Assembly (NCBI GenBank): GCA_020845895.1 | Contig: JADLEX010000082.1 | Coordinates: 1-59,005 of the forward strand | Direction: 5' to 3' | DNA: 59,005 bases | Source: Deltaproteobacteria bacterium | GTDB lineage: Bacteria; Lernaellota; Lernaellaia; JACKCT01 | Part shown: positions 41,223-44,168 of the stretch, one piece after another | Layout: each line of letters begins with the position of its first letter | Numbering within the stretch: position 1 is the stretch's first letter | Notes under the pieces: model-generated | Database searches by the model: none | Told to the model about the DNA's origin: nothing | Seen by the model: the letters and a program-made list of their open reading frames with translations, nothing else | Position numbers and translations under genes: made by a program

Positions 41223-42794
41223 TTACACCGGCGAAACGCCGTGCTTCTTGTACGGGCGCTCCACCTTCTTGTGTTCGGCGAGGCGCAGCGACCAGATGAT
41301 CTTCTCGCGCGTCTCGCGAGGATCGATCACGTCGTCGATGAAGCTCCAGCCGCTCGCGACGTAGACGTCGATCATCTTCTTGAACTGCGCGATCAGCATG
41401 GCGCGCATGCCCTCTTTGTCCTCGGCCTGCTCGATCATGCCGCGGCCCATGATGTTCACCGCACCCTCGGGCCCCATGACGGAGATCTCCGCGGTCGGCC
41501 ATGCGAACACAGCGTCGGCGCCGAATTCGCGACCGTTCATCGCGAAATAGCCCGCGCCATACGCCTTGCGCAGCACCACCGTGATCTTGGGGACCGTCGC
41601 CTCGGACATCGCGAAGATCATCTTCGCACCGTGGCGAATGATGCCCATGTGCTCGACCGATTTGCCGACCATGAAGCCCGGCACGTCCTGCAAAAAGATC
41701 AGCGGAATGTGGAACGCGTCGCACAGCGAGATGAACCGCGCCGCCTTGTCCGCCGAGTCGTTGTCGAGCACCGCGCCCTTGGCCTTGGGCTGGCTGCCCA
41801 GAATGCCGACGGGCTGGCCGTCCATGTGGGCGAGGCCGGTCACGATCGACTTCGCGAACTTGGGTTTGATCTCGAAAAAATCGCCGTTGTCGACGATCAG
41901 CTTGATGACGTCTTTCACGTCGAAGGGCTTGCGCGGATTGGTCGGCACGATGCCGAGCAGGCCGTCCTCGCGGCGTTTGGGGTCGTCGGTGCAGGTCACG
42001 CGCGGCGGCCGGTCGTTCACCGACGACGGGAAAAACGACAGATATTTCTTGACGACCTCGATGCACTCGCGATCGTCGGCGACCTCGACATCGGCCACAC
42101 CCGAGATCTGCGTGTGGACCTTCGATCCGCCCAGCTCTTCCTCGGTGATGTCCTCGCCGGTCGCGGCCTTCACCAGATGCACGCCCGCGAGCGCCATCGA
42201 CGAGATGCCCTTCACCATCGGCACGAAATCCGACAGGCCCGGGATGTAAGCGGTGCCCGCGGAGCACGGCCCGAGCATCGCCGCGACCAACGGGATGACG
42301 CCGCTCATCTGCACCTCGTCGTAAAACAGCCCTCCCGACCCCGCGAACTGGCTGCCCGTCGCCTCCTGCACGCGCGCGCCCGCCGAGTCGAGCAGCCACA
42401 CGAAGGGCACGCGCTTTTCGAGCGCCCATTTGCGCAGGCGCGTCATCTTCATTTCGCTGATCATGCCCATCGAACCGGCCATGACCGTGAAATCGTACGC
42501 GCCGCAGCACACGAGTCGGCCGTCCACGTGCCCGAAGCCGGTGATGACGCCGTCCGCGGGCGTCTCCTTGCCGGCCATCAGCGGGCTCTGGCTCTGATGC
42601 CGCGCGTGCATCATTACCTCGGTGAACGTGCCGGGGTCGAACAGCAGATCGATGCGCTCGCGCGCCGTGAGCTTGCCGCGCGAATGCTGCTTGGCGACCG
42701 CGGCCTCTCCGCCCATCGCACGCACCTTCGCGCGTTTCTTCTCGAGTCGCGCGAGCATTTCTTCCATCGGGGGGTATTCAAGCGGATCGGACAT
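41223..42794 (-). CDS. Acyl-CoA carboxylase, carboxyltransferase (beta) subunit
   Basis: A 523-residue biotin-dependent carboxyltransferase with both crotonase-fold halves. GGGAG precedes the ATG. The N-half has KQHSRGKLTARERIDLLFD and LLDSAGARVQEATGSQFAGS; the C-half has FLQDVPGFMVGKSVEHMGII and YGAGYFAMNGREFGAD. The size and motifs fit the propionyl-, methylcrotonyl- or geranyl-CoA carboxylase group rather than bacterial AccD. It moves carboxyl from carboxybiotin to an acyl-CoA. The partner biotin carboxylase lies two genes upstream in the operon, but no biotin carrier protein is encoded nearby. Last gene of the operon, directly after the four-helix-bundle element. Confidence 0.93.
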   Translation of the reverse strand: MSDPLEYPPMEEMLARLEKKRAKVRAMGGEAAVAKQHSRGKLTARERIDLLFDPGTFTEVMMHARHQSQSPLMAGKETPADGVITGFGHVDGRLVCCGAYDFTVMAGSMGMISEMKMTRLRKWALEKRVPFVWLLDSAGARVQEATGSQFAGSGGLFYDEVQMSGVIPLVAAMLGPCSAGTAYIPGLSDFVPMVKGISSMALAGVHLVKAATGEDITEEELGGSKVHTQISGVADVEVADDRECIEVVKKYLSFFPSSVNDRPPRVTCTDDPKRREDGLLGIVPTNPRKPFDVKDVIKLIVDNGDFFEIKPKFAKSIVTGLAHMDGQPVGILGSQPKAKGAVLDNDSADKAARFISLCDAFHIPLIFLQDVPGFMVGKSVEHMGIIRHGAKMIFAMSEATVPKITVVLRKAYGAGYFAMNGREFGADAVFAWPTAEISVMGPEGAVNIMGRGMIEQAEDKEGMRAMLIAQFKKMIDVYVASGWSFIDDVIDPRETREKIIWSLRLAEHKKVERPYKKHGVSPV

Positions 42795-42795
42795 G

Positions 42796-43242
42796 TCAGG
42801 CTCCCGTCTCAGGGTTCTTGGATTTTGGGTTTTGGTTGTTGGTTCGCTGGCGCGTGGATCCGGGCGTTGACGATCCCTCCGATCGTTTCGAGAGCGCGCG
42901 AATCAATCCACCGAGAACGCGGCCGAGACGATCGCACCGCGCGAGTAGGTCCTTATTGCAATTCAGGTCCGCCATGCCTAGACGTTGCGAGAGAAGGAGT
43001 TGTGTTTCCAGTTCCGAAAGACTTCCGTACGCAATGTGCAGGAAACGCACGAAGTCGGTGTTGCTCCCTCGCCCGGCGCCTTCCGCGATGTTCGATGGCA
43101 CCGAGACCGCCGACTTTCGAAGCTGCGCTACGAGACTGTATTGCTCTGCTTTCGGGAAGTTCGAGGTCAATCGATAACAGGACTCTGCGATGTCCATCGC
43201 CTGTTTCCATGCTTCCAGATCCCGATAGCTCCCACGGATCAC
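42796..43242 (-). CDS. Four-helix-bundle protein (23S rRNA IVS / S23 family)
   Basis: A 148-residue helical protein. MIRGSYRDLEAWKQAMDIAE, VAQLRKSAVSVPSNIAEG and FVRFLHIAYGSLSELETQLLL are the family core, first seen in proteins encoded inside 23S rRNA intervening sequences and related to the Avd protein of diversity-generating retroelements. The last 20 residues (NNQNPKSKNPETGA) are Asn/Lys/Pro-rich because the frame reads through the element's inverted repeat. It sits alone between two catabolic genes with which it shares no obvious function, ending 1 bp before the carboxyltransferase start. Members of this family bind nucleic acid or act as accessory factors; the role here is unknown. Confidence 0.88.
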   Translation of the reverse strand: MIRGSYRDLEAWKQAMDIAESCYRLTSNFPKAEQYSLVAQLRKSAVSVPSNIAEGAGRGSNTDFVRFLHIAYGSLSELETQLLLSQRLGMADLNCNKDLLARCDRLGRVLGGLIRALSKRSEGSSTPGSTRQRTNNQNPKSKNPETGA

Positions 43243-43295
43243 GCTATCGCCCCCGAACCCTCGTGTCGCTCACCAACAACCAAAAACCAAAAACC
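42820..43295. mobile_element. Inverted-repeat-bounded element carrying the four-helix-bundle gene
   Basis: A 24-bp inverted repeat (22 matches) brackets the gene: left arm 42820-42843, right arm 43272-43295, sharing a perfect 14-bp core ACCAACAACCAAAA. The arms are A/C-rich on one strand, unlike the GC-rich surroundings. The right arm begins 2 bp from the enoyl-CoA hydratase stop; the left arm lies within the end of the four-helix-bundle frame, just before the carboxyltransferase. A transcript would fold with the ends paired, as in 23S rRNA intervening sequences. No transposase is encoded, so any movement would need outside help or an RNA route. Confidence 0.6.
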
Positions 43296-43297
43296 AC

Positions 43298-44074
43298 CTA
43301 CCTGTCCTTCCAATTCGCGTCCCGCTTCTCCATAAACGCCATCACACCCTCCATGGCGTCCTCGGCCATCGCGTTCACGGTCAGCATCGTGTGCAGATAT
43401 TTGAGCGCGTCCTCGGTGCTCATGTCGTCCATGTCGTAGAACGCCTTTTTACCGAGGCGCAGCACGGCGGCGGATTTCGACGCGAGCGCGGCGACGATCT
43501 CGTCGGTTTTCGTGTCGAGTTCGGCGGCGGGCACGGCGTAGTTGGCGACGCCGTGGCGCACCGCTTCTTCCGCGGTGAATCGCCCGCCGGTCAGCATGAT
43601 CTCCATGAGTTTTTTGCGTCCCACGTGACGAACGAGCAGCGCCATGATCATCATCGGGAACAGGCCCAGTTTGATTTCCGGCGTGCCGAAGGTCGCGTCG
43701 GCGGTGGCGACGACGATGTCCGACGCGCACGCGAGACCGAGCCCGCCGCCCAGCGCGTGGCCGTTCACCCGCGCGACGATCGGTTTGCCGCAGCGCCCGA
43801 AACGCAGCAGCAACTCGGCGTACTCGCCGCGGCCCTCGTGCATGGCGACAAAGCCCGCCGACGGATCGATGCGCAGATTGCCGCCCGCGCAAAACGCCTT
43901 GTCGCCCGCGCCGGTCAGCACGATCACGCGCACCTCGGCGTCGGCCTCATGCGCGTCGATCGCCCCGCGGATGCCGCGGATCACGTCAAAGTCAATCGCG
44001 TTGCGCGTCTCGGGCCGGTTGATGACGATCCGCCCGACAGGCGGCGCTTTTTCGATCAGAACGGCGTCGGACAT
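43298..44074 (-). CDS. Enoyl-CoA hydratase/isomerase family protein
   Basis: A 258-residue crotonase. VIVLTGAGDKAFCAGGNL forms the first oxyanion-hole loop and KPIVARVNGHALGGGLGLACA the second. In the region holding the two catalytic glutamates of hydratases, one is visible (FGTPEIKLGLFP, Glu near 139); the first is less clear, so the exact reaction is uncertain. It could hydrate enoyl-CoA or methylglutaconyl-CoA, or act as an isomerase. It lies between the biotin carboxylase and carboxyltransferase of the same operon, as in liu/mcc-type clusters for branched-chain acyl-CoA breakdown. Confidence 0.88.
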   Translation of the reverse strand: MSDAVLIEKAPPVGRIVINRPETRNAIDFDVIRGIRGAIDAHEADAEVRVIVLTGAGDKAFCAGGNLRIDPSAGFVAMHEGRGEYAELLLRFGRCGKPIVARVNGHALGGGLGLACASDIVVATADATFGTPEIKLGLFPMMIMALLVRHVGRKKLMEIMLTGGRFTAEEAVRHGVANYAVPAAELDTKTDEIVAALASKSAAVLRLGKKAFYDMDDMSTEDALKYLHTMLTVNAMAEDAMEGVMAFMEKRDANWKDR

Positions 44075-44101: not shown

Positions 44102-44157
44102 TCACCCCGGCCTTCGGCCACCCCTCTTTCGCCCGGCGGGAGAGGGGACGGGGGTGA
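44102..44157. repeat. Branched palindromic intergenic repeat
   Basis: Outer arms TCACCCC (44102-44108) and GGGGTGA (44151-44157) enclose two hairpins: GGCC-TTC-GGCC (44109-44119) and CCCCTCT ... AGAGGGG (44121-44147). It fills the gap between the biotin carboxylase and hydratase genes. Its appearance suggests a multicopy extragenic palindrome; only one copy is in the window. Confidence 0.55.
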
Positions 44158-44168
44158 GGGCGCTCAAG

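What the first reader, a model, noticed from the sequence alone, without database searches (positions are those of the whole stretch)
42820..43295. Four-helix-bundle gene as an inverted-repeat-bounded insertion inside a catabolic operon
The IVS/S23-family gene is enclosed by a 24-bp inverted repeat (22 of 24 matching) of unusual A/C-rich composition, and the unit separates enoyl-CoA hydratase and carboxyltransferase genes that would otherwise be adjacent. The right arm begins 2 bp after the hydratase stop, and the protein's Asn/Lys/Pro-rich end is simply the translated left arm. In 23S rRNA intervening sequences the same protein family sits in a stem whose ends pair. This suggests a free-living relative of those elements, able to insert between genes and perhaps be excised from RNA without breaking neighbours.
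Basis: partly seen in the sequence, partly recalled or inferred. Interest (0 to 1): 0.7.

Follow-up and report, generated by a model that had tools for sequence, protein, structure and literature searches.

The report
Heptamer-armed S23 insertion element
A small gene of unknown function, flanked by mirror-image arms made of a repeated 7-base unit, has inserted between two genes of an operon; the same build recurs in many bacterial lineages, so it looks like an overlooked kind of mobile DNA that may also explain the scattered 7-base repeats of bacterial genomes.

Summary
The gene (Pfam 23S_rRNA_IVP, 42796-43242 -) lies inside a 25-nt inverted repeat (23/25 matching), and its relative G002 has the neighbouring genes 10 bp apart with neither gene nor arms. 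The arms are tandem heptamers, (GGTTNTT)n upstream and the complement downstream. This is general: of 127 such genes in about 90 genomes, 72% have inverted arms (0.2% of shuffles, 2% of shifted windows, 0/16 HepT controls), with a sharp period of 7 and a different heptamer in almost every case. Viral contigs give 26/32. The unit is mobile: cyanobacterial plasmids 85-98% alike carry or lack it, two clean sites show 5-bp target duplications, and six sites in one genome are empty in a congener. Insertions sit just after a stop codon, mostly in sense orientation (55:9). Gene-less arms occur elsewhere in the same genomes and are rare where the gene is absent. The Coxiella 23S rRNA intervening sequence is published with the same parts. 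I read it as a free-standing S23 insertion element, a new variant of the rRNA IVS. That the S23 protein drives movement, and any RNA excision, are inferred.

The parts
42796..43242 (-). S23 / 23S_rRNA_IVP four-helix-bundle gene (148 aa); its C-terminal tail is the translated 3' arm; stop TGA 1 nt before the next gene's ATG
   Evidence: ORF; PF05635 3e-36; TIGR02436 1.1e-34; 2gsc (Xcc0516) 1.2e-27
43272..43296 (-). 5' arm in gene orientation, TGGTTTTTGGTTTTTGGTTGTTGGT, tandem heptamers (GGTTTTT/GGTTGTT)
   Evidence: period 7, self-match at 7 nt 0.94
42819..42843 (-). 3' arm in gene orientation, ACCAACAACCAAAACCCAAAATCCA, inverted copy of the 5' arm (23/25)
43298..44074 (-). upstream host gene: enoyl-CoA hydratase; stop codon 1 nt from the 5' arm
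   Evidence: directly adjacent to the carboxyltransferase in G002
41223..42794 (-). downstream host gene: acyl-CoA carboxyltransferase, start 24 nt from the 3' arm

Best explanation
A compact mobile element of about 0.48 kb: an S23/IVP gene between inverted arms of tandem heptamers. It inserts at the 3' ends of genes in operons, just behind the stop codon and mostly in sense, where read-through transcription can express it and both neighbours stay intact. Insertion duplicates about 5 bp of target. SHOWN (family level): the inverted heptamer arms, carriage of arms with the gene, empty sites, site and orientation bias, two 5-bp duplications, co-occurrence with gene-less arms. SHOWN (window): gene, arms, empty relative. 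INFERRED: the S23 protein, whose relative Xcc0516 is a ring of five four-helix bundles, binds the paired or single-stranded arms (about one subunit per heptamer; median arm 32 nt) and, with host enzymes, moves the unit and, in trans, gene-less arms and miniature hairpins. INFERRED: in RNA the arms form a stem like that of 23S rRNA IVSs, which RNase III cuts.
For: Inverted arms around 72% of 127 genes vs 0.24% of shuffles, 1.3% of mismatched partners, 0/16 HepT loci and 2% of shifted windows; 26/32 in viral contigs. Period 7 and its multiple 14 are strongly enriched; of other periods only 8 shows a minor excess. The two arms match best in register, 0.877 vs about 0.75 one or two units off. Empty sites: G002 for the window; T. 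variabilis plasmid C against 98%-identical plasmids, Nostoc ATCC 53789, N. edaphicum nrdB/nrdA; six G280 sites empty in congener G388. Target duplications GTAAT and TTCTA. 78-82% identical copies with the same heptamers at other sites. 55 sense vs 9 antisense, p = 3.5e-9. The 5' arm starts a median 3 nt after the upstream stop, the 3' arm ends about 20 nt before the next start. Gene-less arrays in 11/20 gene-positive vs 1/20 gene-negative genomes, p = 0.0014. Coxiella IVS has the same parts.
Against: 28% of the genes show no arm pair above threshold. Only two target duplications are clean and none is resolvable in the window. The protein has no known catalytic motif, and heptamer type tracks protein identity only weakly, which argues against simple sequence recognition. 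Mismatches in the arms show no clear RNA-level bias (95 G-U type vs 79 A-C type). Movement has not been seen. Gene-less arrays also occur in a genome without a detected S23 gene (G052). Site bias could partly be survivorship.
Confidence: 0.72

Rival explanations
1. The S23 unit is a passenger: the heptamer arms are non-autonomous repeats moved by some unrelated transposase or recombination system, and the gene was captured between two arms.
For: Gene-less single arms and miniature hairpins are common; heptamer sequence is nearly independent of the S23 protein sequence; 5-bp duplications are typical of several DDE transposases (general knowledge).
Against: In 400 kb of four genomes every widely spaced inverted heptamer pair enclosed an S23 gene and no other cargo was seen; arms recur around the gene in unrelated lineages with unrelated heptamers; arrays are rare in S23-less genomes.
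Confidence: 0.2
2. An RNA-level element: an IVS relative whose transcript is cut out by RNase III at the arm stem and spreads through reverse transcription.
For: Sense bias 55:9; the window transcript folds with the arms paired, z -2.5; Coxiella IVS stem is cut by RNase III in vitro; weak match to the retroelement protein Avd.
Against: Reverse transcriptase (PF00078) was not found in genomes with many copies (G002, G059, G045, G007, G022, G024); no excess of G-U over A-C mismatches.
Confidence: 0.2
3. Ordinary simple-sequence slippage repeats next to a horizontally spread gene; the inverted arrangement is incidental or serves as terminators or mRNA-stabilising hairpins.
For: Heptanucleotide repeats are known to be abundant in many genomes without any S23 link (cited in PMC4679880); copy number varies by whole units (L203 vs L213).
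Against: Slippage does not make in-register inverted copies on both sides of a gene; empty sites have no array; HepT and shifted controls are negative.
Confidence: 0.06

Closest known systems
23S rRNA intervening sequences (IVS) with S23p ORF, e.g. Coxiella burnetii (PMC4990558)
   Same: S23-family ORF in a ~0.43 kb unit, terminal inverted repeat (28-bp stem), tandem heptamers before the ORF
   Different: IVS lies in rRNA and is cut out by RNase III; here the unit lies between protein or tRNA genes in operons, in many lineages, with gene-less derivatives and target duplications
Heptanucleotide simple repeats: cyanobacterial STRRs, Beggiatoaceae TAACTGA repeats (PMC4679880)
   Same: Intergenic tandem 7-mers near gene ends, lineage-specific sequence
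   Different: Not linked to an S23 gene or to an inverted pair in the papers found; here they are the arms or derivatives of the element
REP/REPIN with RAYT (PMC3116915, found) and MITEs
   Same: A gene with terminal repeats plus many gene-less short hairpins in trans
   Different: No Y1 or DDE transposase; the protein is a four-helix bundle; repeats are heptamer arrays of almost any sequence
Avd of diversity-generating retroelements
   Same: Related four-helix-bundle family, weak match (E 1.1e-4, 22 bits)
   Different: Far below the curated cut-off of 80 bits; a reverse transcriptase is not needed genome-wide

Membership tests
PF05635 / TIGR02436 S23 four-helix-bundle family | profile match above curated cut-off | tested here: met
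   124.3 bits vs 33.8; 118.9 vs 24
23S rRNA intervening sequence (IVS) | located inside a 23S rRNA gene | tested here: not met
   between two catabolic genes; no rRNA in 40 family loci, some beside tRNA genes
23S rRNA intervening sequence (IVS) | terminal inverted repeats forming a stem around an S23 ORF | tested here: met
   arms paired in the predicted fold
23S rRNA intervening sequence (IVS) | excised from the transcript by RNase III | not testable with these tools
   needs RNA-seq or an in vitro assay
Classical insertion sequence | recognisable transposase | tested here: not met
   only PF05635 in the only enclosed gene
Classical insertion sequence | target-site duplication | tested here: inconclusive
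   5 bp at two sites in relatives (GTAAT, TTCTA); not resolvable in the window
Diversity-generating retroelement (Avd) | Avd above cut-off with a partner reverse transcriptase | tested here: not met
   22.4 bits vs cut-off 80; RT not found in high-copy S23 genomes
Heptanucleotide repeat arrays (STRR type) | tandem 7-nt units in intergenic DNA | tested here: met
   period scan

The most novel reading that the evidence does not exclude
Free-standing S23 elements are a widespread class of mobile DNA whose only protein, a ring-forming four-helix bundle with no known nuclease fold, moves heptamer-armed hairpins in cis and trans. They are the source of the heptanucleotide repeats of bacterial genomes, and the rRNA intervening sequences are simply copies that landed in rRNA.
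Probability: 0.45. Interest if true: 0.9.

Novelty: new variant of a known kind. Interest (0 to 1): 0.77.

Why it matters
S23/IVP proteins have had no known function since they were found in rRNA intervening sequences, and heptanucleotide repeats have had no agreed origin. The link found here joins the two and makes both testable: does the protein bind heptamer hairpins, and does it move them? It also warns that 'four helix bundle' genes inside operons, including cas operons, can be insertions rather than pathway parts. A 2023 survey (PMC10910872) names a 23S rRNA IVP domain in a figure of CRISPR-linked genes, and here the gene lies between cas6 and cas4 in Pseudanabaena.

Tried and rejected
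Reverse-transcriptase partnership (suggested by the Avd kinship): rejected as a requirement, since RVT_1 was not found in several genomes with many copies. RNA-level selection read from G-U versus A-C mismatches in the arms: no clear signal. Protein-heptamer co-variation: only weak, clearest above 60% identity. Phage records: no match in INPHARED, though IMG/VR contigs hold 32 relatives. One search treated all loci as oriented with the gene, which is wrong for minus-strand hits; its lines for those loci were discarded and the analysis redone with an HMM on both strands. Target duplications at the six G280 sites and the nrdB/nrdA and integrase sites could not be resolved because flanks had diverged. 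The reversed-pattern control is not valid, because a heptamer array read backwards still matches itself. Only 16 HepT loci passed as controls, so shifted windows were added. The session's paper library held no report of the free-standing, heptamer-armed form, but most subscription papers and preprints are not in it.

Full report
WHAT IS THERE. In the window a 25-nt inverted repeat (42819-42843 / 43272-43296, 92% complementary, 428 nt apart) encloses a 148-aa ORF on the minus strand (42796-43242). The protein belongs to Pfam 23S_rRNA_IVP (3e-36) and NCBIfam TIGR02436, and its nearest solved relative is Xcc0516 of Xanthomonas (2gsc, 1.2e-27, five chains), described as a toroidal homopentamer of four-helix bundles (PMC4990558). 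Upstream in the same orientation is an enoyl-CoA hydratase and downstream an acyl-CoA carboxyltransferase. The ORF reads through the 3' arm (TNNQNPKSK) and stops 1 nt before the next ATG. The whole genome holds two other family members, with a different heptamer (GAATGAA type), and about ten gene-less arrays of the window's heptamer.

ARMS ARE HEPTAMERS, AND THIS IS GENERAL. I took 127 family members from 125 loci in about 90 genomes. Scoring 185 nt upstream against the reverse complement of 230 nt downstream gave a median of 39, against 17 for shuffles and for mismatched partners. Scores of 30 or more occurred in 72%, against 0.24% of 2540 shuffles, 1.3% of mismatched partners, 0 of 16 HepT loci and 2% of 99 shifted windows. 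Periods 3 to 14 were scanned: 7, and its multiple 14, stood out (period 7: 41% upstream and 54% downstream at 21/28 or better; period 8 reached about 10%, other non-multiples 0-2%). Almost every locus has its own heptamer; the 5' arm is poor in C (12%) and rich in G. Arms match in register (0.877) rather than by any unit shift (about 0.75), so one arm looks like a copy of the other. An independent sample of 32 viral contigs gave 26 with arms.

IT INSERTS. G002, the relative with an 81% identical carboxyltransferase, has the two window neighbours 10 bp apart. G001 has a gene-less (GTGACGA) array right behind the hydratase stop. Cyanobacterial plasmids give finer resolution. Trichormus variabilis plasmid C carries the unit, while plasmids 98% identical lack it. 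Empty AAAAAGTAATTAAC becomes AAAAAGTAAT|AAATCAG...CTTCTTT|GTAATTAAC, a 5-bp duplication. In Nostoc ATCC 53789, GGTTCTAGGTTATG becomes GGTTCTA|AATCAGG...TTCTGGA|TTCTAGTTATG, again 5 bp. A third site shows TAATG/TTATG. Units 78-82% alike with the same heptamers sit at other sites, so the arms travel with the gene, and the empty sites hold no arrays. Decayed copies and gene-less hairpins occupy some of the same sites (L212, L214, L232). In G280, all six tested insertions are empty in its congener G388.

WHERE IT INSERTS. Between co-directional genes the unit is in sense in 55 and antisense in 9 cases (p = 3.5e-9). The 5' arm starts a median 3 nt after the upstream stop codon and the 3' arm ends about 20 nt before the next start. 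Part of this may be survivorship, since operon gaps are short. No rRNA was found in 40 loci; a few lie beside tRNA genes.

GENE-LESS ARRAYS. In 400 kb of four S23-bearing genomes, widely spaced inverted heptamer pairs all enclosed an S23 gene; the other arrays were single arms or two tight hairpins. In samples of 20 genomes each, period-7 arrays were found in 11 S23-rich genomes (4.6 per 100 kb) but in 1 S23-negative genome (0.7 per 100 kb; Mann-Whitney p = 0.0014).

HOW IT PROBABLY WORKS. Shown: a gene-plus-arms unit that inserts, with a target duplication at two sites, behind stop codons, mostly in sense. Inferred: the S23 ring binds the arms and, with host enzymes, moves them in cis and in trans. 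The arm length (median 32 nt, about 4.6 heptamers) fits one subunit per heptamer, but nothing here tests this. Invariant polar residues in a 12-sequence alignment (Q40, S47, N51, E54, S74, E77) are candidates for the working surface. A reverse transcriptase is not required. RNA excision as in IVSs is possible but untested.

RELATION TO WHAT IS KNOWN. The Coxiella IVS has an S23 ORF, a 28-bp terminal stem and tandem GACAGAT heptamers (PMC4990558), the same parts as here. It is therefore not a new protein family, but the free-standing form, its generality, mobility and link to genome-wide heptamer repeats were not found in the papers held. I file it as a new variant of IVS elements; it fails the IVS definition on location.

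Noticed in passing
window 44104-44165; L011 and L015 around 1530-1600: A GC-rich palindromic repeat (CCCTCACCCC...GGGGTGAGGG) lies between the hydratase and biotin carboxylase genes and again beside gene-less heptamer arrays elsewhere in the genome; it looks like a separate REP-like family.
   Followed up: no
L083 1400-1485 (G001) and L324/L326 (G388): Another small hairpin element (CACCACGAAG...CTTCGTGGTG) sits behind stop codons at S23-type sites in two unrelated genomes.
   Followed up: no
L206 (Pseudanabaena pPg_01) and L072/L234/L235 (G264): S23 units lie between cas6 and cas4, and beside CRISPR-like 36-37 nt repeat arrays; a survey figure of CRISPR-linked genes names a 23S rRNA IVP domain (PMC10910872).
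   Followed up: partly
G014 (e.g. C7:104028-104554, C2:122174-122711): Many PF05635 hits come as divergent pairs about 0.4-0.5 kb apart, partial matches, possibly a palindromic or two-gene version of the family.
   Followed up: no
L207 (Nostoc edaphicum pNe_5), L315 (G280): S23 units sit between nrdB and nrdA (antisense) and inside what looks like an ATPase operon (sense), each empty in a relative.
   Followed up: yes
G052: Five period-7 arrays in 40 kb although no PF05635 gene was found: the one exception among 20 S23-negative genomes.
   Followed up: no
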